From an uncultured Anaerolineae bacterium (GTDB lineage Bacteria; Chloroflexota; Anaerolineae; Anaerolineales; Villigracilaceae), in the NCBI GenBank assembly GCA_903854805.1, contig CAINXK010000529.1, forward strand, positions 1 through 9,390: a stretch of 9,390 bases of DNA, read 5' to 3'. Under the pieces are notes generated by a model. The model was not told the origin of the DNA. It saw nothing but the letters and a program-made list of their open reading frames with translations, and searched no databases. The translations under genes and the position numbers were made by a program. Positions 1,880 through 9,055 of this stretch are shown one piece after another. Position 1 is the first letter of the stretch; each line of letters starts with the position of its first letter.

Positions 1880-1987
1880 TGTATCTATCTACGCATTGGG
1901 ATCAACGAGACCGCCACAGGCACGCTTGGTGGTTATAGCAATATCGAGCAGTTTTTGATAAATATTCCTGGTTCTAATGGAATTTGA
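1880..1987 (+). pseudogene. Remnant of a second RTX-like repeat protein
   Basis: The + frame ending at TGA 1985-1987 encodes IGINETATGTLGGYSNIEQF followed by LINIPGSNGI from about 1895. The phrase GGYSNIEQF resembles GGFRNITTL and GSFSHINGL in the preceding gene, where it links repeat units. The frame is closed upstream by TAA at 1877-1879 and has no start codon, so this is a fragment. It probably came from duplication or deletion inside a larger adhesin-like gene. The assignment rests on a short match. Confidence 0.5.
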
Positions 1988-2226
1988 GGTTTTGACAAAA
2001 ATGAAGCATGCTTGGCTAAAATCCCAACCATGAGATAAGCCAAGATGCCTCAACGAAAGTGTATCGAAAGAAAGGCTATTATTACAAATCCTGTCAGTAA
2101 ATATTTGACGCATTGGTGAAAACATCCAGTGCCTGGTGTAAATGCCAGAGTCTCGCGAGAAACGCTAAAAAATAGCGCAGATGGGAAAATGTGCGCTAAT
2201 ACCCTCTCAAGGCTGACTCTACCTTT
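1988..2226. other. Gene-free interval
   Basis: I see no convincing gene on either strand. A TTGACA box (1992-1997) and TAAAAT (2017-2022) are 19 bp apart, longer than the usual 17, and lead to no recognisable gene. A 24-codon ORF (2045-2119) has no recognisable product. TCTCGCGAGA (2151-2160) is a perfect 10-bp palindrome, and CGCTA/TAGCG (2163-2177) is a 5-bp hairpin with an A5 loop. AT content is higher than in the preceding gene. Confidence 0.4.
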
Positions 2227-2250
2227 GATACGTACCCCCTTGGGGGCACA
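2227..2250 (+). repeat. Left copy of a 24-bp direct repeat flanking mntA-hepT
   Basis: It matches 3089-3112 at 20 of 24 positions without gaps: GATACGT, four differences within the next five bases, then CTTGGGGGCACA. The two copies bracket the toxin-antitoxin module and its terminator-proximal spacer, as the ends of an acquired segment might. A chance match of this quality somewhere in a window this size is not excluded. Confidence 0.45.
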
Positions 2251-2295
2251 ACTCTGACCGCCGAAAGGCGGTCGTTTGTTCCAAACAACGCCCCC
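2242..2295. other. Three-way-junction structured sequence
   Basis: An outer stem GGGGGC (2242-2247) with GCCCCC (2290-2295) encloses two adjacent perfect hairpins. The first is GACCGCC-GAAA-GGCGGTC (2256-2273), with a GNRA loop. The second is GTTTG-TTC-CAAAC (2274-2286). It lies about 120 bp upstream of mntA and overlaps the left direct repeat. There is no T run, so it is not a standard terminator. It could be a small structured RNA, a palindromic repeat element or a recombination site, and the sequence does not decide between these. Confidence 0.45.
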
Positions 2296-2380
2296 GTTGA
2301 TGGGATGATGTTTGAATTTGCTTGTCCCAGAGTGCAAAGTGCGCGACGGGGACAAAAAGAACCGCGTTTAGGGTGGATTT

Positions 2381-2411
2381 TTGATTCATGGAGATAGGGT
2401 ATAATTTATTC
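2381..2411 (+). promoter_or_regulatory. Candidate leaderless promoter of mntA
   Basis: A perfect TATAAT lies at 2400-2405 and the mntA ATG begins at 2412. Transcription normally starts about 7 nt after the -10 box, so the mRNA would begin at or next to the start codon. No Shine-Dalgarno sequence fits between them. The -35 element is weak: TTGATT at 2381-2386 is only 13 bp away, and T-rich sequence at 2378-2383 gives 16 bp. Confidence 0.5.
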
Positions 2412-2717
2412 ATGCTTACGACTCATATCAGCATTCATCGACAAGAAATCACTGCGTTCTGCCATCGCTGGTGGGTGGTTGAGTTGGCTTTATTTGGTTC
2501 GGTTTTGCGCGATGATTTTTCTCCAGAAAGCGATGTGGATGTATTGGTGACATTTGCCCCAGAAGCAGAAATCAGCCTGTTTGATATGGCGCAGATGCAA
2601 ATTGAGTTGCAGGGTATTTTCAGCCGTCCGGTGGACATTCTCGAAAAAGATGCTTTGCGCAACCCCTACCGTAAGCGTGAGATTCTCAATACGGCGCAGG
2701 TGGTGTATGCGGCCTGA
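2412..2717 (+). CDS. mntA: MNT-type nucleotidyltransferase antitoxin (MntA)
   Basis: A 101-residue minimal nucleotidyltransferase. The active-site signature is complete: G29-S30, ten residues, then D41-V-D43 (GSX10DXD), with the third acidic residue at D75 in PVDIL. Family knowledge: MntA antitoxins neutralise the partner HEPN toxin HepT by transferring AMP to a tyrosine in its RX4HXY motif. Start choice: an upstream in-frame ATG (2388) would put TATAAT inside the coding sequence, whereas ATG 2412 follows that box directly and gives the usual length. The gene overlaps hepT by 11 bp (2707-2717), which implies coupled translation and one operon. Both catalytic aspartates and the partner are intact, so the module looks functional. 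Confidence 0.88.
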   Translation: MLTTHISIHRQEITAFCHRWWVVELALFGSVLRDDFSPESDVDVLVTFAPEAEISLFDMAQMQIELQGIFSRPVDILEKDALRNPYRKREILNTAQVVYAA

Positions 2718-3048
2718 GGAACGTGACCTGGCTTATTTATGGGATATGCGGGAGGAGGCCAGACAGATTGCAGCCTTTCTCAAAGGGATTCCTTACGCCA
2801 AATTTGTTCAAAATAACATGGTTCGTTATGCAGTCGAGCGTTCCCTAATGATCATTGGCGAAGCCGCGAACCATGTTTCGGATGAATTCCAGGATGCTCA
2901 TCCTGAAATTGCTTGGCGGCAAATCATTGGCCAACGAAATGTATTGGCGCATGAATACGGGGATATAAAAGTAGATCGGATCTGGTCAGCGGCTGCAATC
3001 AGCGTGCCACTGTTGTTGCAAGAGCTGGAAAAACTGGTATCTGATTAA
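2707..3048 (+). CDS. hepT: HEPN-domain toxin ribonuclease (HepT, DUF86)
   Basis: A 113-residue, all-helical HEPN protein. The RX4HXY motif is present as RNVLAHEY (R77, H82, Y84), followed by GDIKVDRIW, typical of the DUF86/HepT family. The conserved IGEAANHVS helix (50-58) is also present. Family knowledge: HepT dimers cut RNA, and AMPylation of the motif tyrosine (here Y84) by MntA silences them. The ATG at 2707 lies inside the end of mntA in a different frame, so translation is probably coupled to the antitoxin. The full length, intact motif and following terminator argue for a live toxin-antitoxin operon. Such modules stabilise mobile DNA and can defend against phage. Confidence 0.9.
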   Translation: MRPEERDLAYLWDMREEARQIAAFLKGIPYAKFVQNNMVRYAVERSLMIIGEAANHVSDEFQDAHPEIAWRQIIGQRNVLAHEYGDIKVDRIWSAAAISVPLLLQELEKLVSD

Positions 3049-3088
3049 CATATAGAATGCCACCCTCTCAGAAATCTATTACATAAAT

Positions 3089-3112
3089 GATACGTGGTCG
3101 CTTGGGGGCACA
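3089..3112 (+). repeat. Right copy of the 24-bp direct repeat
   Basis: This is the partner of 2227-2250, in the same orientation, 41 bp past the hepT stop. It keeps GATACGT and CTTGGGGGCACA but lacks the C run and the three-way junction that follow the left copy. Confidence 0.45.
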
Positions 3113-3133
3113 TTATAGTTGTGTGTTTGAAAC

Positions 3134-3168
3134 GTGAGAGGTTGGTCTAATCCAGCCTCTCACTTTTT
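3134..3168 (+). terminator. Intrinsic terminator of mntA-hepT
   Basis: GTGAGAGGTTGG (3134-3145) pairs with CCAGCCTCTCAC (3152-3163) over 12 bp with one G-U. The loop is 6 nt, and TTTTT (3164-3168) follows at once. It lies 86 nt after the hepT stop with no gene between. Confidence 0.85.
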
Positions 3169-3324
3169 GATTATCACCACAATTATTTACCAGCCGCCGC
3201 CGTACCGGTCAATCCGCGTGATGTGGAAATCTACCGTCTCCACGAAGTCCCCGCGCTTTTCGGGGGTACAGAAGAAAAGCGTACGATCCCATCTTTGGCG
3301 AAAGAGTTTGGGCTTAAGGAATAG
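3169..3324 (+). pseudogene. Orphan C-terminal coding fragment
   Basis: The frame ending at TAG 3322-3324 reads coherently from about 3187: LPAAAVPVNPRDVEIYRLHE, then VPALFGGTEEKRTIPSLAKE and FGLKE. Third codon positions are GC-rich through this stretch, as in a real gene, yet the frame has no credible start and begins just after the hepT terminator. It is best read as the tail of a gene whose body was lost when the toxin-antitoxin segment or another element arrived. I do not recognise the family. Confidence 0.45.
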
Positions 3325-3637
3325 AGCGTTGATCCAGCAGCTTCTTCGGTTTCGACCCAGTTTCGCTAGTCAGACTCTCGAGTTTGGACCCTTCAGGTTG
3401 ATGATTTTGAGGGTGCTGAAGAGATAATGTAGTTTTTCCTGACAATGCTTTTTCTCCATTGCGTATGCTAAAATCAACGAAGTTGCTTCGCATATTTTAA
3501 CCTATCGCAACTTATTGCCTATATTAATTTTGGCGTTTAGATTGTACCAAACCATAGCTCATCAGATGGTAAAACGACAGCTGAAGCAATAGTTGGGCGG
3601 TTGAAAATAAAATTGCCGAATTCTTATGATAAAACCC
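3325..3637. other. AT-rich gene-free interval
   Basis: I find no gene here on either strand. A 5-bp hairpin CGAAG-TTG-CTTCG (3478-3490) is followed by CATATTTT, a weak terminator at most. TTGGGCGG (3593-3600) and CCGCCCAA (3636-3643) form a perfect 8-bp inverted repeat across 35 bp, running into the next spacer element. Confidence 0.4.
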
Positions 3638-3771
3638 GCCCAATTCCGGTGCATCGGATAAATGCGGGCTTTCGCCCACACTTTCGGAGAAGCAGCCCCA
3701 AACGGCGGATTCGGCGTCTGGTGGCTTTTTCCGCCAAATCCTGCCCTTGCCGGTGAAGCCAGCCGTTGGAC
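3638..3771 (+). repeat. attC-like imperfect inverted-repeat spacer A (tentative)
   Basis: On the left are GCCCAAT (3638-3644), a 5-nt gap and TGCATCGG. On the right are CCGGTGAA (3750-3757), a 7-nt gap and GTTGGAC (3765-3771), which fits the GTTRRRY core. The reverse complement of the right inner arm, TTCACCGG, matches TGCATCGG at 6 of 8 positions. Internal stems include GGGC-TTTC-GCCC. The left core ends AAT instead of AAC and one gap is a base too long, so this is a weak candidate. It ends 66 bp before the next gene. Confidence 0.3.
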
Positions 3772-3837
3772 GGCAATACATCTAGTGTAGCAATTGTCTG
3801 ATTGTGCCAATAAAGCGTTAAGAGGAAACAAGCAAGA

Positions 3838-4243
3838 ATGATATATTGTTTAAAGTGCGGGGCGCAGAAGCTTTCCGTGCAGGTGCGGGCTGATGCCCGA
3901 AGGTGAGCAGTCTCGAGGGACTGCACGCACAACAAAGCCCTGGCAGAGCAACTCGCTCAAGTTCACTGCGGCAGGCACTGTGGGCGCCGTGCTGTGCTTC
4001 GTTATCGTTTTCGGCGGCTGGCTCAGCCCCGCACGCCCGGCTGTGGCACTGCTACTTTGCCCCCTCATGGTCGTGGCTGGGCTTTCACTGTGCATGGGCT
4101 TGGTGACGGGGGTCGTCAGTCTCTCTCGTCGCGAAGGCGCTCTCGCAATTGCGGGCCTTGCCATTTCGGTTCTCGGGCTGGCGCTCCTAATGCTCGTTGC
4201 GCTCATGACGGCGTTCGTGGTCATGCCGTTTTCCATAGGGTAG
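3838..4243 (+). pseudogene. Small zinc-ribbon membrane protein with one-base frameshift
   Basis: Two frames combine. ATG 3838, 11 nt after AGAGGA (3821-3826), starts MIYCLKCGAQ, a typical zinc-ribbon opening, but meets a stop soon after. The frame open to 4243 carries FPCRCGLMPEGEQ from about 3871, then three hydrophobic segments (from Met 3893: residues ~28-50, 52-75 and 83-113) and ends MPFSIG. Reading the G run at 3859-3862 as three G instead of four joins them into MIYCLKCGRRSFPCRCG, which gives CXXC and CXC pairs before the membrane part. The helical region resembles DUF4190-like small membrane proteins. If the extra G is real, only the 116-residue part from ATG 3893 could be made. The metal site and function are inferred. 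Confidence 0.6.
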
Positions 4244-4270
4244 GCAATGGCGGCTGCGAGTTAATGCCCC

Positions 4271-4361
4271 GTCGAACAAGCGTATCCAGCAGACGCCTGC
4301 CACGGAAGCGTAGACTGAGCAAGGAAGCAAGTGGGTGCTGGGCGCAACTGATGCGTTTCAT
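4271..4361 (+). repeat. attC-like imperfect inverted-repeat spacer B (tentative)
   Basis: On the left are GTCGAAC (4271-4277), a 5-nt gap AAGCG and the arm CCAGCA (4286-4291). On the right are TGCTGG (4336-4341, perfect complement), GCGCAAC, a 6-nt gap TGATGC and GTTTCAT (4355-4361). The outer heptamers pair at 6 of 7 positions allowing G-U. The 5/6 gap asymmetry suits attC, but GTTTCAT breaks the RRR rule. It lies 27 bp after one gene and 12 bp before the next. Confidence 0.33.
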
Positions 4362-4373
4362 AGAAAGTCTTTA

Positions 4374-4802
4374 ATGGAGTGGCATAATTGTTCTAACAGA
4401 GTCCCCAGCATGCAACGTCAACCTCTTTTCCATCTCAGCCTATCCTTAACTGTCAACATCCTTCTGTGCTGCACACTTGTGCCATTCGTAGTACCACCTT
4501 TTGAAGGTTACTCATTCTCAACATTGCTCGAAGTTCTTCTCTGGCAGGGTATTGGCATGGTTGGGTGGCCATTTGCACTTTTCGGTATGGCTCTTAGCAT
4601 CCCTTTTGGTGCCAAACTTACCAGCGTAGCCTCCTTCCTGTTCATCATCCTATATCCTACTATTCAATTCCTTTTGATCCGTTCCGTGATCTCAAAAGCG
4701 CTGCATCGCTTGGATTTCATTCTGTTGCATGTCTTCGTTATCTTCTCATTTGTCATAGTATGGTACTATGTTCTTAATGGGTATGATTTCATGGCAGGGT
4801 AG
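4374..4802 (+). CDS. Four-helix membrane protein of unknown function
   Basis: A 142-residue protein with four hydrophobic segments at about 19-41, 55-78, 83-104 and 113-135, joined by short loops (PPFEGYSF; SKALHRLD). There is no signal peptidase motif and no recognisable catalytic motif, so it is probably an inner-membrane protein. Start choice: ATG 4335 lies inside the preceding spacer and ATG 4410 is also possible. ATG 4374 is favoured by AGAAAG at 4362-4367, six bases upstream. It stands alone, 130 bp after one gene and 243 bp before the next, with spacer-like inverted repeats on both sides. I do not recognise the family. Confidence 0.65.
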   Translation: MEWHNCSNRVPSMQRQPLFHLSLSLTVNILLCCTLVPFVVPPFEGYSFSTLLEVLLWQGIGMVGWPFALFGMALSIPFGAKLTSVASFLFIILYPTIQFLLIRSVISKALHRLDFILLHVFVIFSFVIVWYYVLNGYDFMAG

Positions 4803-4842
4803 GCAAGATATTGGGATTGCCCACCGATATATGCAGTGGCAA

Positions 4843-5004
4843 ATGAAAACCAAAATTAAAACCTTCTTGCAAAATCTGCCCAACAAAGCTAACACTGGAC
4901 GCTGGGGTAAAGTGCGGCATTTTTTAGCATTTTTCTGGCTTCGAGTTTTTTCTGCTCCCAAACAGAAGCCACGCCAGCCCCAGCGCCACAGCCCGCAGAT
5001 CTAA
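4843..5004 (+). CDS. Possible small basic protein overlapping spacer C
   Basis: A 53-codon ORF from ATG 4843 starts MKTKIKTFLQNLPNK and ends with the basic, proline-rich stretch [12 protein letters not shown] plus HSPQI. No good ribosome-binding site is visible. The same peptide phrase ends the ORF at 6904-7068, because both read through the shared 52-bp repeat in the same frame. It may be a real small protein, or simply an open frame in conserved non-coding DNA. I favour the latter. Confidence 0.25.
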   Translation: MKTKIKTFLQNLPNKANTGRWGKVRHFLAFFWLRVFSAPKQKPRQPQRHSPQI

Positions 5005-5008
5005 TCAG
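4878..5008 (+). repeat. attC-like spacer C, left half intact
   Basis: On the left are GCCCAAC (4878-4884), fitting RYYYAAC, a 5-nt gap AAAGC, then TAACACTGG and GCTGGGG. A central region 4935-4987 follows and is nearly identical to 7012-7063, with TGGCTTC...GAAGCCA forming an inner stem. CCCCAGCG (4978-4985) pairs with CGCTGGGG on the left. The outer right core is missing: ATCTAATC stands where GTTRRRY would be expected. The right boundary is therefore approximate. The site lies 75 bp after a membrane-protein gene and just before the lipoprotein gene. Confidence 0.45.
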
Positions 5009-5032
5009 GGAACATCGCGACTCACTGATAAC

Positions 5033-5038
5033 AAGGAG
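5033..5038 (+). promoter_or_regulatory. Ribosome-binding site fixing the lipoprotein start
   Basis: AAGGAG lies 7 nt before ATG 5046, optimal spacing. It supports that start over any internal Met. Confidence 0.8.
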
Positions 5039-5045
5039 ACCGCTT

Positions 5046-6839
5046 ATGTTCAGTAAACTGCTTTATGCGACAACAATTCTTTTATGCATTCAAAGTTGCA
5101 ATCCAATTGATTTCCAGACAAGAGAACCAACTCGGGCAGTGTCGCCAACTTTTCCCCCACTTCCATCAGCGGTACCCTACACGCCAACGACATCTTCTCC
5201 GATGTTTGTTTCCGCCCACACAAATGCGACCAAAACTCCCACTCTTGTGCCGATCCATTTTAGCGCTAATGCAGGCGGCGGCACGCCTCCATATGATTAT
5301 TATTGGGATTTCGACAACTCAGACGGAATTCAAGTTGATAAAAATCACAAGTCTCCATCATTTGTTTATGGAATCCCGGGAAATTATGCAGTGACGCTTA
5401 CCGTCAAGGACAGTAGAGGAATTTCATCATCAACACAATTAAATATTACTGCCTTGCCTAAACCATACAAATCAGAAAAGCCTATTCGCCTAATTAACAT
5501 TCATGGAACACGTGAAAAACCTATTGTGATCGAAGGATTGGACATTTCAGCGCCCAACGATAATGGCATTGCTCTTGTCAATTGCTCTTATGTCATCATC
5601 CGGGACAACTATATCCACGATGTAAACTATGATGACATCGAAACAGGGATATACGGCAACGCGATCTATGTTCAGGATTCTTCCCACATCGAAATTGCCA
5701 GCAATCTAGTCACCAATAATCTACATGGAATCTATGTTTCATCCACGCCAAATTCGCCACAGATCGAAGATATTAGTATTCACGACAATGTAGTCACGGG
5801 CAACCGCATGAACAACGGCATCCATGTTGACGGCGCAGATGGCGTTGATATCGGTAATAATCATGTCAAAGACAACGGAGATATCCAATTCTTTGAACAT
5901 CACCGCATAATCGGTATAATCGTTTGGGATTCTACAAATATCAAGATACACGACAATATCTCGAACGGCTCAACCAGCGACGGCTTTGGAATTGCCGTCA
6001 GTACTGAGTTTCGAAAAACACACAAGGGGTTTTTCTGCCGCGGGATCGAAATCTACAATAATACGTCCGTTGAAAACGGCGAGCAGGGAATTTGGCTCAG
6101 CACCGTCAGGGATGGAAGTGTCCATGACAATTATCTTGCCCGAAATCGAAATCCACGGGAAGACCTTGGAAGCAGTGGCATCATGATGGAAGGACAGGTT
6201 ACAGGTCTTAAAGTATTCAACAATAATATCCTTGATAATGAAGTGACCGGAATTGGTATTGAATCATCCTGGAATAACGAAATTTATCAAAACAGGGTTA
6301 CGTCACCAAACTCCGGCTGGGGAGCAATCTGGATTAACCAAACTCGCCAACCATATTTTGAATTCCACACCGCCAATGACAACTTAATACGAAACAATAT
6401 TCTCTTCAACAGCTCAGTTGGGATTGGGATTGAAGCCGGTCAGAATAATACGATCACCAATAACACCATTTACAAAAACGGGCCCCACTACACCGGAGCT
6501 GGTGGAATTCTAATCATGCCAGAAGCCGCGGGAACCGTGATAAAAAACAATATTATTGTCTGGAATGACGGCTTCGGAATTTTAGATAAAAGCGGGCAAA
6601 GCCAAGTCGCCTATAATGACTTTTTTCAAAATACGGCAAACATCACCGGCATAAATCTTGATGTGAGCAATATCTTTGATGATCCTCATTTTGTCGATGC
6701 AGAGTCTGGAAACTTCCGGCTTTTACCCAATTCGCCGTGTCGGGATACGGGTAATCCTGCTTCCAATTTCAGTCAAGAGTCATTTCCCAATGGAAGCCTC
6801 ATAGATATGGGTGCTTACGGCAACATCGGAGATTGGTGA
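5046..6839 (+). CDS. PKD-domain / right-handed beta-helix lipoprotein
   Basis: A 597-residue exported protein. Residues 1-17 are a lipoprotein signal peptide with the cysteine at position 18 (IQSC). A Pro/Thr/Ser-rich linker (~25-52) follows. A PKD-like Ig-fold spans ~53-136, with YYWDFD (85-90) and the closing YAVTLTVKD. Residues ~147-560 hold many PbH1-type coils (SYVIIRDNYIHDV, NSSVGIGIEAGQNNTITNN), characteristic of parallel beta-helix proteins such as pectate-lyase-like and NosD-like families. The end (DPHFVDAESGNFRLLPNSP ... DMGAYG) is the usual cap of this class. Family knowledge: such proteins bind or cleave polysaccharides. No catalytic residues can be assigned, so polysaccharide binding is an inference. 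It is clearly more AT-rich than the gene at 1-1787, which suits separate acquisition. Confidence 0.85.
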   Translation: MFSKLLYATTILLCIQSCNPIDFQTREPTRAVSPTFPPLPSAVPYTPTTSSPMFVSAHTNATKTPTLVPIHFSANAGGGTPPYDYYWDFDNSDGIQVDKNHKSPSFVYGIPGNYAVTLTVKDSRGISSSTQLNITALPKPYKSEKPIRLINIHGTREKPIVIEGLDISAPNDNGIALVNCSYVIIRDNYIHDVNYDDIETGIYGNAIYVQDSSHIEIASNLVTNNLHGIYVSSTPNSPQIEDISIHDNVVTGNRMNNGIHVDGADGVDIGNNHVKDNGDIQFFEHHRIIGIIVWDSTNIKIHDNISNGSTSDGFGIAVSTEFRKTHKGFFCRGIEIYNNTSVENGEQGIWLSTVRDGSVHDNYLARNRNPREDLGSSGIMMEGQVTGLKVFNNNILDNEVTGIGIESSWNNEIYQNRVTSPNSGWGAIWINQTRQPYFEFHTANDNLIRNNILFNSSVGIGIEAGQNNTITNNTIYKNGPHYTGAGGILIMPEAAGTVIKNNIIVWNDGFGILDKSGQSQVAYNDFFQNTANITGINLDVSNIFDDPHFVDAESGNFRLLPNSPCRDTGNPASNFSQESFPNGSLIDMGAYGNIGDW

Positions 6840-6903
6840 AATACAAGGTTCACTATAAACAACAGTCTTTGATATTACAATTATTTTTGGAACGAGGAAC
6901 ACC

Positions 6904-7068
6904 ATGAGCGTGATTATTCTCCATGCTGCCAAAAAAAAGCGCGCACTGGATCCTTCGACAGGCTCAAGGCAGGCTGTTGGGGATTCTGCGGCACCTACGG
7001 CAAGCAGATTTCCGGCTTCGAGTTTTTCTGCTCCCAAACAGAAGCCACGCCCGCCCCAGCGCCGGTAA
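6904..7068 (+). CDS. Possible small protein ending in the shared repeat
   Basis: A 54-codon [23 protein letters not shown] onward, ending [19 protein letters not shown] (6894-6899) lies 4 nt before the ATG, closer than usual. The middle is encoded by the dispersed TTCGACAGGCTCAAGGCAGG element and the end by the 52-bp repeat shared with 4935-4987. Only the first ~14 residues are therefore unique. It could be a gene start truncated by repeat insertion. Confidence 0.25.
6949..6972. repeat. Dispersed TTCGACAGGCTCAAGGCAGG-type repeat
   Basis: This short segment matches a class of intergenic repeats that I recall as common in some environmental genomes; read on the minus strand it gives the frequent peptide CLEPVEG. 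It sits where the left arm of spacer D would be expected and may have disrupted it. The class assignment is from memory of the motif only. Confidence 0.4.
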
Positions 7069-7083
7069 CAGCTGACGTTAGGC
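6971..7083 (+). repeat. attC-like spacer D, right half intact
   Basis: The central region 7012-7063 differs from 4935-4987 by two substitutions and one T. CCCCAGCG follows, then CCGGTAACA (7062-7070), a 6-nt gap GCTGAC (7071-7076) and GTTAGGC (7077-7083), a perfect GTTRRRY core. Reverse-complemented, this right end has the same 30-nt layout as the left end of spacer C (GCCYAAC, gap, TNNNACYGG, then CGCTGGGG), with the attC-specific 5 versus 6 gap. Its own left core is absent, replaced by the dispersed repeat. It lies 35 bp before the carbonic anhydrase start. Confidence 0.45.
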
Positions 7084-7118: not shown

Positions 7119-7745
7119 ATGAAAAATTTACCCACTCTTTTTGAAAATAACCGAAAATGGGCTTCTCAAACATCTCAAAACAACCCATCGTTTTTTTCCA
7201 AGCTTGCCCAACAGCAAAACCCCGAGTTTCTCTGGATCGGTTGCTCAGATAGTCGAGTTCCGGCAAATGAAATCATCGGTCTGCTACCCGGAGAACTCTT
7301 TGTTCATCGCAACGTCGCCAACCTTGTAATTCATACTGACATGAATTGTCTCTCCGTACTGCAATATGCTGTAGAAATACTAAAAGTCAGACATATCATT
7401 GTTTGTGGTCATTATGGTTGTGGTGGCGTTAAAGCCGCTTTGGAAAGTCAATCGCATGGGTTGATCGACAATTGGCTTCGTCACATTCGTGATATTTATC
7501 AAAGACGGCGAAGCGACTTGGCGCGGTTTTCAACGGCAGAGGACAGGCTCAATCGGCTTTGCGAGTTGAACGTAATTGAACAAGTAAAGAATGTTGGAAA
7601 CACGACCATAATTCAAGAAGCATGGCAAAGAGATCAAAGCGTGACTATCCATGGCTGGATTTATGCGATCTCAGATGGCTTGTTGAAGGATTTGGATGCC
7701 TGTATTTCTTCGATTTCCGACCTGGCAAGCTTGGAAACCCTGTGA
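7119..7745 (+). CDS. Beta-class carbonic anhydrase
   Basis: A 208-residue enzyme interconverting CO2 and bicarbonate in the cytoplasm. Zinc ligands C42, H98 and C101 are visible in CSDSR (42-46) and HYGCGG (98-103). The D44-R46 dyad that gates the active site is intact, as is [13 protein letters not shown] (58-70). The C-terminal [15 protein letters not shown] is typical of the E. coli Can-like clade, and the length is close to that family's ~220 residues. ATG 7119 matches the family N-terminus; no strong Shine-Dalgarno sequence is seen. It stands alone on the + strand between spacer D and an antisense group II intron that begins 38 bp after its stop. It appears functional. Confidence 0.93.
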
Positions 7746-7783
7746 ACAAGCTGTTGGTTCGTGATAGCGGTCAAGACCGGGCT

Positions 7784-7818
7784 GTGATGGTAGGTGGGGC
7801 CATCGCTGACCCCACCTC
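7784..7818 (-). ncRNA. Group II intron domain VI and 3' splice site
   Basis: GGTGGGG and CCCCACC form the core stem around loop AGCGAT. Beyond an A-U pair, the adenosine at 7791 is bulged before CC. Seven bases then remain to the terminal AC at 7785-7784, which places the branch point at the standard 8th position from the 3' end. Confidence 0.85.
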
Positions 7819-7825
7819 CACTTCA

Positions 7826-7859
7826 GAACCGGACGTGCGAATTTCACTGCATCCGGCTC
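7826..7859 (-). ncRNA. Group II intron domain V
   Basis: A 34-nt hairpin on the minus strand: the catalytic AGC triad lies in the opening GAGCCGG, a GAAA loop is at the tip, the CG bulge is in the 3' strand, and it closes with CCGGTTC. This is the catalytic centre and the most conserved part of group II introns. Confidence 0.93.
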
Positions 7860-8551
7860 CTGAGCATAAGGGCCGTTGTCATCGGCACCACAACAATGAA
7901 CCTTACCATTGTCGCGGCTTGACACCTGAACCGGTCAGAATAGCAGAGATGAACTCCGCGGTCTTCAGTACGTCAAAGACGCCTGCCATAAGACCCGTTA
8001 CCTTCCGATGCCTGTGTCTTCCCTTATACCCGCCCCACGTCAGCATATTCCGAGCATTACCCCAGACCTTTGCTTCTTTGGGGGCATCCTACTCCGCTAC
8101 AGCATACGGCTTGGCCGCCTTCTTTTTGCAAAGAGCCATAGCGGGTTTCCCCGTTCCGGGTGTCCCTTGTTTTGTGACTTTAGGATGGTGCTTTACGCCG
8201 GTGTCCTTTCGAGTGGTTACCATGCGCCGATGTACGGCATGGCCTGAACACAGTCCCTTTTGGGCTTGCCTGTCAACCGGTTTGGCAAGTTGTGCATGAC
8301 GACGCTTCAATCGCACCTTCATTCGTTATCCATAGTCACCTGCTCGACGGGATTGCCGTATCGGTTTGCAGCTTACCGCCTTTCCTTTCCGCTTTAGACC
8401 CGCGTTTGCCGGACGCACGCCTGGGGATGGTGCTTTTACTCCACCACCTGGAGAGTAAGACTTTCACTTACAGGGACACTCAGTTGTCAAAGTACAAAGA
8501 CCTTGCCGCTCATCCCCCGGTTTATACCGGTTTCGAGCGAACGGGTCGCAC

Positions 8552-8557
8552 ACAAAG
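8552..8557 (-). other. Candidate IBS1 in the 5' exon
   Basis: Minus-strand CTTTGT ends at the intron's first base. It pairs with intronic GCAAAG (8073-8068) by five Watson-Crick pairs and one G-U. This supports 8551 as the 5' splice junction over the internal GTGCG motifs at 8418 and 8316. Confidence 0.55.
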
Positions 8558-9055
8558 CGTGCTCCGCACCCCGCGCTTCGGCTATCTTCCCGAAGATGCT
8601 CCACGTATCATTGAGTATATGCAAGCCAACGACTCGGTGTTTGCCTTGCCTATCGAGGTGATCCTGCTTTGCGGATTGCGCTGTTCGGAAGTGGCCGGAC
8701 TGAAAGGCAGCGATGTGGACAAGGAGAACCTGGTGCTGCATATCAAGGGTAAGGGCGGGCGCAAGCGCACAGTGGAGCTCCCGGTGGATCTAGCCGAGCA
8801 GTTAAACGAATCGAAGGAATACTTGTTCACCCCCAACCAGGCTTGGAAAAGCAAGTTCTACCAGGCCGTGCGTAAAGCGGCCCGCGCCCTGGGTATCAAG
8901 ATCAGCGGGCTGCACCGCCTGCGCTCAAACTATGCCCAGGATAAATACACAAAGCTGCGTGCGAAAGGGCTGACCGACCGCCAGGCGCGCCAAAAATTGC
9001 ACACGAACTGGGGCATAATCGGATTGATGTGGTCAAGGGCTATATTCCGCTTTGA
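8553..9055 (+). pseudogene. Tyrosine recombinase, catalytic domain only, frameshifted
   Basis: Homology starts close to the intron edge (QSVLRTPRFGYLPEDAPRII) and covers the integrase catalytic domain: the first arginine in LLCGLRCSEVAGL, the beta-hairpin lysine in GKGGRKRTVELP, and HRLR in GLHRLRSNYAQDKY. The frame then runs off. Changing the A5 run at 8992-8996 to six A continues it as IAHELGHNRIDVVKGYIPL and a stop at 9055, restoring the second histidine and the nucleophilic tyrosine. The N-terminal arm-binding and core-binding domains are missing, so the gene is truncated at the antisense intron and then frameshifted. The frame is open upstream across the intron complement to 8292, but that is not coding. 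It lacks the extra helix of integron IntI and has no IntI motifs. It is probably a phage or ICE-type integrase remnant. Confidence 0.8.

What the first reader, a model, noticed from the sequence alone, without database searches (positions are those of the whole stretch)
7784..8551. Complete-looking group II intron with no reverse transcriptase
Domains V and VI are textbook, the 5' end folds sensibly and an EBS1-IBS1 pairing is visible. Yet only about 768 nt separate the ends and no maturase ORF exists in any frame. Most bacterial group II introns carry one. This copy must be dead or depend on a maturase encoded elsewhere.
Basis: partly seen in the sequence, partly recalled or inferred. Interest (0 to 1): 0.75.

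Follow-up and report, generated by a model that had tools for sequence, protein, structure and literature searches.

The report
Maturase-free group II intron in integron
This is a complete-looking self-splicing group II intron that has lost its own reverse-transcriptase gene and sits in what looks like a gene-cassette recombination site of an integron; relatives in other Chloroflexota show that it belongs to a family that keeps this stripped-down form, so this is more than a single broken copy.

Summary
Confirmed. Window 7784-8551, minus strand, is a whole group II intron (domains I-VI, 768 nt) without an intron protein. Domains V/VI match RF00029 (E 4e-9). The 5' part matches no Rfam model, but homologues prove it: 16 introns give 108 pairs in domains I-III, 74 with compensatory change; the window keeps 99 of 105. 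The missing gene is inherited: nine more full-length ORF-less copies lie in nine Chloroflexota genomes, at several places on a domain I-III tree. RT-bearing relatives encode a 549-aa protein far closer to a IIB (chloroplast-like) maturase than to IIC ones. Two relatives are intermediates: RVT_N plus HNH only. Of 19 copies with 3' exons outside the Ktedonobacteria-size genomes, 14 carry the attC core tail; whole attC sites are shown for five. The window holds attI-like and attC-like sequences, and the intron splits GGGCT|ACAAAGCGTGC. Closest precedent: ORF-less TeI3 introns of T. elongatus, mobilised in trans. New: spread across species, attC setting in a IIB class, HNH-only intermediates, a domain IV swap. 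Splicing of this copy is untested; its exon pairings are 4 of 6 each, and its genome is not held.

The parts
7784..8551 (-). ORF-less group II intron, whole (768 nt), 5' GTGCGAC ... CATCAC 3'
   Evidence: RF00029 hit; homologues over the whole length; structure with covariation
7826..7859 (-). domain V
   Evidence: the window's apical helix has non-standard pairs (A-C at A1 columns 297/307)
7784..7822 (-). domain VI with bulged branch A and 3' splice site
7860..8033 (-). domain IV without ORF, 174 nt between domains III and V
   Evidence: 1701 and 1732 nt in RT-bearing L083 and L046
7980..7995 (-). GGTCTTATGGCAGGCG, identical to the start region of the RT gene in L083: remnant of the lost ORF
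   Evidence: 5' side of domain IV vs L083: 0 of 300 shuffles reach the score
8228..8233 (-). EBS1 (ACATCG)
   Evidence: covariation with 5' exons, z up to 6.6; letters checked
8291..8296 (-). EBS2 (TGCACA), pairs 4 of 6 with exon -9..-14
   Evidence: covariation with 5' exons, z 6.6
8552..8557 (-). IBS1 (CTTTGT), pairs 4 of 6 with EBS1
7779..7783 (+). GGGCT, left part of an attC-like R'' box next to the intron's 3' end
8552..8562 (+). ACAAAGCGTGC, rest of the attC-like left arm; the same 11 nt stand in the attC near IntI of G574 (GCCCAACAAAGCGTGC)
   Evidence: that attC scores 36 in the scan
3450..3598 (+). attI-like region ending GTTGGGC; 3450-3540 is 76% identical over 92 nt to the stretch upstream of an integron integrase gene of G742
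4878..4988 (+). attC-like site 1 (R'' GCCCAAC), right end degenerate
   Evidence: 78% over 104 nt to the attC of G574; repeat of the next
6970..7083 (+). attC-like site 2 ending GTTAGGC
7119..7745 (+). carbonic anhydrase gene in the cassette position between attC-like sites; opposite in direction to the intron
   Evidence: Pro_CA E 1.8e-56, NF007756 307.9 bits
8592..9125 (+). part of a tyrosine recombinase gene; no N-terminal domain found
   Evidence: Phage_integrase E 9e-10; far under the integron-integrase cut-off, 30.2 of 265 bits

Best explanation
A non-autonomous group II intron of the chloroplast-like (CL) IIB class, descended from an RT-bearing integron-dwelling intron whose protein gene in domain IV was deleted (relationship shown, order of steps inferred). 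It inserted in an attC-like end of a cassette, against the cassette's reading direction (read from the flanks). It would fold and splice as the usual lariat-forming ribozyme, helped by the maturase of a related intron acting in trans, and would spread by retrohoming with that protein into attC sites through EBS1/EBS2 pairing (inferred from relatives and the T. elongatus precedent). This particular copy may be weakened: weak exon pairings, a mismatched domain V tip and one base fewer than expected at the 3' junction.
For: Domains V/VI; domains I-III 108 pairs, 74 with double-sided change; domains III-VI 83 pairs, 49 with double-sided change among 9 ORF-less introns; window keeps 99 of 105 and 76 of 83. 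Ten full-length ORF-less copies including the window. Tree: window clade (win, L006, L084, L041) 100%; joined at a 100% node to a group (82%) with RT_L044 and HNH_L166. RT start remnant in domain IV. RT of L083 nearest to 6me0 (E 3e-105; a T. elongatus IIB maturase, recalled) against 1.5e-33 and 4.3e-31 for 7uim and GsI-IIC RT 6ar1. Near-identical copies with unmatched flanks. 14 of 19 3' exons outside Ktedonobacteria-size genomes begin with the attC core tail, background 1.7%; 0 of 5 inside. IntI over cut-off in 8 of 12 host genomes of such ORF-less copies, 0 of 14 controls.
Against: The window's own genome is not held. In 12 host genomes of ORF-less copies outside the Ktedonobacteria-size group no uninterrupted same-family RT was found; G468 holds one split by 2.7 kb. 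Drafts can miss RTs: that of L078 is cut by a contig end. The window has no complete attC at score 30 or more, and its attC-like stretches do not fold clearly better than shuffles (12 and 83 of 200 fold as well). The C-terminal side of domain IV gave no support as an RT remnant (24 of 300). Window EBS1 and EBS2 each pair only 4 of 6.
Confidence: 0.78

Rival explanations
1. A dead copy: a formerly complete intron that lost its gene and is decaying.
For: Exon pairing 4 of 6 at both EBS1 and EBS2; 7 of 83 and 6 of 105 pairs non-standard; 3' exon AGCCC one base short of the TAGCCC of relatives; the attC-like site and the neighbouring recombinase gene are incomplete.
Against: The ORF-less state is shared with L041 and, as far as it is sequenced, L006. 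The number of broken pairs is like that of L041 (5 of 107, 7 of 83) and within the range of RT-bearing introns (0 to 11 of 106-107).
Confidence: 0.3
2. A maturase-independent intron that splices by itself, as reported for C.te.I1 of Clostridium tetani.
For: 0 of 12 host drafts outside the Ktedonobacteria-size group hold an uninterrupted same-family RT; compact domain IV of 160-179 nt in 8 of 8 measured.
Against: New copies at unrelated sites need a reverse transcriptase; drafts are incomplete; the two Ktedonobacteria-size hosts hold 36 and 79 RVT_1 matches, with same-family RT-bearing introns (L055, L054).
Confidence: 0.15
3. A IIC-attC intron, the class known from integrons, minus its protein.
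For: Target ending TTGT and orientation against the cassette.
Against: RT of relatives is IIB/CL by sequence and EBS2-IBS2 covariation is clear, which has not been seen in IIC introns according to PMC7923331 (passages).
Confidence: 0.03
4. A chance join: the 5' part is unrelated sequence next to a domain V/VI fragment.
For: No Rfam model covers the 5' part.
Against: 74% identity over query 6-771 of 777 with L041, covariation in domains I-III, EBS1/EBS2 found by covariation.
Confidence: 0.01

Closest known systems
ORF-less TeI3 introns of Thermosynechococcus elongatus (PMC2882425, passages read)
   Same: Probably the same RT class (nearest PDB protein of relatives is 6me0, a T. elongatus maturase by recall); about 1.5 kb removed from domain IV with ORF remnants; mobilised by other introns' proteins.
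   Different: TeI3 introns are described as one genome with a single deletion; here ORF-less forms occur in many species, at several places on the tree, with HNH-only intermediates and a domain IV swap, and many sit in integrons.
IIC-attC introns (PMC7923331, passages read)
   Same: Insertion at TTGT/T of attC, against the cassette direction.
   Different: IIC class with an RT and no known IBS2-EBS2; here CL/IIB, EBS2 covariation, no protein.
UHB.I2, a IIB1/CL1 intron beside an attC in a soda-lake metagenome (PMC7923331, abstract and section 7 read)
   Same: CL-class intron next to an attC.
   Different: Carries its protein, lies just after the attC and in the cassette direction, with boundaries UUGCG..GU.
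C.te.I1 of Clostridium tetani (PMC4424553, passages read; PMC3919590, search listing only)
   Same: Bacterial ORF-less group II intron without a related protein gene in its genome.
   Different: Single independent case, in a surface-layer gene; here a family, largely in integrons.

Membership tests
Group II intron | Domain V/VI catalytic hairpins with branch A | tested here: met
   RF00029 E 4.1e-9
Group II intron | Domains I-III in order, GUGYG..AY ends | tested here: met
   GTGCG..AC; 108 pairs, 74 with compensatory change over 16 introns
Group II intron | EBS1/EBS2 pairing to 5' exon | tested here: inconclusive
   Family: z up to 6.6 at both; window itself 4 of 6 at each
Group II intron | Splices and reverse-splices | not testable with these tools
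   needs RNA work
Chloroplast-like (CL) IIB class | RT with RVT_N, RVT_1, GIIM, nearest to CL/IIB proteins | tested here: met
   on relative L083 (class of 6me0 recalled; its HNH tail read by eye, no Pfam hit); the window has no protein
IIC-attC introns | IIC-class RT | tested here: not met
   (on relatives)
IIC-attC introns | insertion at TTGT/T of attC, against the cassette | tested here: inconclusive
   5' TTTGT and left arm match; 3' lacks the T; attC incomplete
ORF-less introns mobilised in trans (TeI3 type) | ORF deleted from domain IV, remnants of its ends | tested here: inconclusive
   deletion clear; N-terminal remnant supported (0 of 300 shuffles), C-terminal remnant not (24 of 300)
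ORF-less introns mobilised in trans (TeI3 type) | related intron with intact protein in the same genome | tested here: inconclusive
   window genome not held; 0 of 12 other host drafts, one split copy in G468; present in the two Ktedonobacteria-size hosts
Integron cassette array | intI with attI and attC sites | tested here: inconclusive
   attI-like and attC-like homologues of sites near IntI of G742 and G574; no intI found in the window; no attC at score 30 or more in the window

The most novel reading that the evidence does not exclude
Chloroflexota integrons harbour an old, species-crossing population of RT-less CL/IIB introns in which a compact ~170-nt domain IV is itself a mobile module, passed between introns by recombination or template switching; introns shrink from RT+HNH to HNH-only to ORF-less and persist as attC-specific parasites of RT-bearing kin, with two subfamilies specialised on two different positions of attC.
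Probability: 0.35. Interest if true: 0.8.

Novelty: new variant of a known kind. Interest (0 to 1): 0.6.

Why it matters
A 2015 review calls ORF-less group II introns rare in bacteria and says that known introns were found through the RT gene, though a domain V survey of 225 genomes that it cites also found few (PMC4424553, passages). A family like this could be missed by RT-based surveys. It offers a natural series from complete retroelement through HNH-only intron to bare ribozyme, steps supposed on the way to spliceosomal introns, and links them to integrons, where introns could interrupt or shield attC sites. Among the papers listed by searches (20 of 78 listed), 48, 49, 82, 83 and 87 of the open-access library I saw none on ORF-less attC introns or on ORF-less introns of Chloroflexota; subscription papers are not covered.

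Tried and rejected
Plasmid and phage records: only the domain V/VI end matched, in 22 plasmid records; none in phages. Two viral contigs pattern scans found nothing. A first attC scanner was too strict and failed on its positive control; a second found the two attC of G239 with 0 in shuffles of that locus. Window stretches as DNA hairpins: attC-like 1 and 2 and the 5' exon fold no better than many shuffles (12, 83 and 115 of 200 as good). EBS1 guessed by eye was wrong; covariation placed it elsewhere (up to about 570 positions by 10 offsets were tried, so the z values are maxima). Circular permutation in G398 (domain V upstream of domain I) was rejected: by sequence it is a truncated RT-bearing intron with an HNH tail next to another intron. 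My first reading, four independent ORF losses, was weakened when L077 proved to be a recombinant whose domain IV is 90-95% identical to L006. In one search many of the 65 of 396 matches hit only a 30-nt dispersed palindrome (query 261-291), so that tally is no count of introns. In one search the L090 end was set wrongly and counts as a miss, and the ends of L052, L053 and L054 are rough.

Full report
OBSERVATION. The intron lies on the minus strand, 8551 down to 7784. Rfam RF00029 matches domains V and VI over the full model, E 4.1e-9. The longest ORF overlapping it on the intron strand is 84 aa, and four RT proteins find nothing in the intron. RNA folding is better than 20 of 20 shuffles. No Rfam model matches the 5' part at E up to 1, so it needed proof by homologues.

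HOMOLOGUES. The window's genome is not held. One pattern scan of genome contigs gave one hit, a 4094-base contig titled Anaerolinea thermophila MAG (genome G001). Searches around it matched in 33 of 400 genomes of the phylum sample, 27 of 400 of the order sample, 5 of 21 of one family and 2 of 4 of one genus; many are domain V alone. A class sample searched with L041 matched in 65 of 396, largely through a short palindrome. Full-length introns without an ORF: window 768, L041 861, L049 775, L050 776, L077 810, L079 842, L082 837, L158 783, L159 841, L160 852 nt; ends set by eye from the alignments. Incomplete but ORF-less as far as they go: L006, L080, L081; L042 lacks part of domain I and runs into an ORF-less domain IV; L043 is cut in domain I; L084 and L085 are two contigs not shown to join. 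RT-bearing relatives include L083 (2336 nt, 549-aa protein), L046, L052, L054-L056, L058, L059, L096; L044, L078, L095 and L163 are cut or partial; L048, L088 and L092 hold RT fragments. 'Ktedonobacteria-size' (10-14 Mb) is my label for the genomes of L049-L056, L059, L095 and L096; classes are not told by the tool.

STRUCTURE. Nine ORF-less introns give 83 pairs for domains III-VI, 49 with at least one double-sided change. Sixteen introns, 7 ORF-less and 9 with RT or RT fragment, give 108 pairs for domains I-III, 74 with double-sided change. The window keeps 76 of 83 and 99 of 105. Both structures were predicted from the same sequences, so they lean towards them. EBS1 and EBS2 were located from covariation with the 5' exons of 17-19 introns, z up to 6.6 each, best of several thousand tests. 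The window pairs 4 of 6 at each.

LOSS OF THE GENE. Domain IV between domains III and V is 160-179 nt in 8 of the 10 full-length ORF-less introns (L050 not given, L158 not measured), 435 and 459 nt in L166 and L161, 1701 and 1732 nt in L083 and L046. The window keeps the RT start region GGTCTTATGGCAGGCG of L083 (5' side: 0 of 300 shuffles reach the score; against L166 and L161 10 and 6 of 300), while the C-terminal side is not significant (24 of 300). L161 and L166 encode in-frame proteins of 131 and 123 aa with RVT_N and HNH matches and no RT or maturase match. On a domain I-III tree the window clade has 100% support and joins (100%) a group with RT_L044, HNH_L166, L048, L159, L160 and L169; other ORF-less copies fall beside L083 (L077), with L170 (L158), as their own clade (L079-L082), and with RT_L095 (L049, L050); several deep nodes are weak. 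L077 is a recombinant: first ~550 nt 80-95% to L083, domain IV 90-95% to L006 (71% to L083 where comparable); its end is as close to L041 (82%) as to L083 (81%). So the number of losses cannot be read straight from the tree.

CLASS. L083's protein has RVT_N, RVT_1 and GIIM and an HNH-like tail by eye; nearest solved structure is 6me0 (E 3e-105; T. elongatus IIB by recall), followed by 7uim (1.5e-33), GsI-IIC RT (4.3e-31) and LtrA (1.6e-30).

SETTING. Of 19 copies of any kind (ORF-less, RT-bearing, or domain V/VI fragments) outside the Ktedonobacteria-size genomes, 14 have 3' exons matching T(T)RGNY, background 1.7%; misses are the window, L045, L077, L080 and L090 (the last mis-set). Inside, 0 of 5 match, three of them with rough ends. 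A calibrated scan finds a whole attC across the joined exons of L041, L082 and L046, 3 of 9 joined sites; the 5' exons of L041, L043, L082 and L091 beat 300 of 300 shuffles and L046 296, 5 of 24 tested. In 32 intron loci together 12 attC-like sites at the looser score 28 stand against 4.3 expected, one of them a weak one inside a gene of the window, so the array signal away from the junctions is modest. IntI over cut-off: 11 of 19 genomes and 4 of 6, 0 of 14 controls in each. Of the 12 hosts of ORF-less copies outside the Ktedonobacteria-size group it is over cut-off in 8 (G368, G398, G417, G742, G511, G468, G1029, G864), not in G001, G615, G455, G1090; in G1029 one IntI gene lies on the intron's contig about 11 kb away. 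The two Ktedonobacteria-size hosts have none over cut-off. In the tree group with L044 all six members (L044, L048, L159, L160, L166, L169) have RYYYAAC 7-9 nt before the junction, and the three with known 3' exons (L159, L160, L166) read AGCCGACGC, AGCCGACGC, ACCCGACAG: insertion in the L'' arm instead. The same pattern also fits L082. In the window, 3450-3540 is 76% identical to the stretch just upstream of IntI in G742; 4878-4980 and 7001-7069 are 78-79% identical to an attC (scan score 36) 1.1 kb from IntI of G574; the intron splits GGGCT|ACAAAGCGTGC. No IntI gene was found in the window; the neighbouring recombinase is a fragment. Gene order: attI-like, short ORFs, attC-like, beta-helix gene, attC-like, carbonic anhydrase, intron.

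HELPER PROTEIN. Nine hosts in the order of A. thermophila (G001, G368, G398, G417, G742, G615, G511, G468, G455) and three from the class sample (G1029, G864, G1090) were searched with TIGR04416: only G468 has matches over cut-off. Compared with the L083 protein, the matches of the other hosts are 45% identical or less over short stretches or found nothing. G468 holds on contig C199 a same-family intron start (model 3-522), then RT residues 11-256 at 63% identity, then 2.7 kb of other sequence, then residues 268-542 at 42% and domains V/VI: a split, perhaps composite, RT-bearing intron. So 0 of 12 hold an uninterrupted same-family RT. Drafts break at repeats, so this is weak evidence of absence. 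The two Ktedonobacteria-size hosts hold 36 and 79 RVT_1 matches, among them same-family introns L055 and L054.

VERDICT. A real, inherited ORF-less state in a CL/IIB intron family that largely lives in integron attC sites; mechanism by analogy with T. elongatus (PMC2882425, passages). Activity of this copy is open.

Noticed in passing
L161:2896-4083 and L166:2858-3924: Group II introns whose protein gene is cut in frame to RVT_N plus HNH (131 and 123 aa), RT and maturase domains gone; G824 gave a second match with equal score on contig C15, not fetched.
   Followed up: partly
L044, L048, L159, L160, L166, L169: A related intron group inserted in the L'' arm of attC, RYYYAAC-N7-9 | A(G/C)CCGAC, a different attC position from the window group.
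   Followed up: partly
L077:2910-3719: Recombinant intron: domains I-III like RT-bearing L083, domain IV like ORF-less L006; domains V-VI equally close to L083 and L041.
   Followed up: yes
L174 (G468:C199:14000-23407), 1971-7074: Same-family RT-bearing intron split by 2.7 kb, its two RT halves of unequal similarity (63% and 42%) to L083.
   Followed up: no
L046:184-5048: RT-bearing intron interrupted in its 5' part by another element with an RT of a different class (about 30-34% identity) in opposite direction: perhaps a nested intron.
   Followed up: no
L041 intron positions 261-291; L006: Short palindromes (CACCTGCA..) inside the introns that also occur scattered in many Chloroflexota genomes.
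   Followed up: no
window 2388-3048: Nucleotidyltransferase/HepT-like pair (MNT-HEPN type toxin-antitoxin) next to the array.
   Followed up: no
window 2226-2250 and 3088-3112: Direct repeat TGATACGT..CTTGGGGGCACA (84%) flanking the nucleotidyltransferase/HepT pair, spacing 862.
   Followed up: no
L043:1363-1600: 5'-truncated RT-bearing intron keeping only an HNH-like tail and domains V/VI, beside an intron of the window type in G398.
   Followed up: partly
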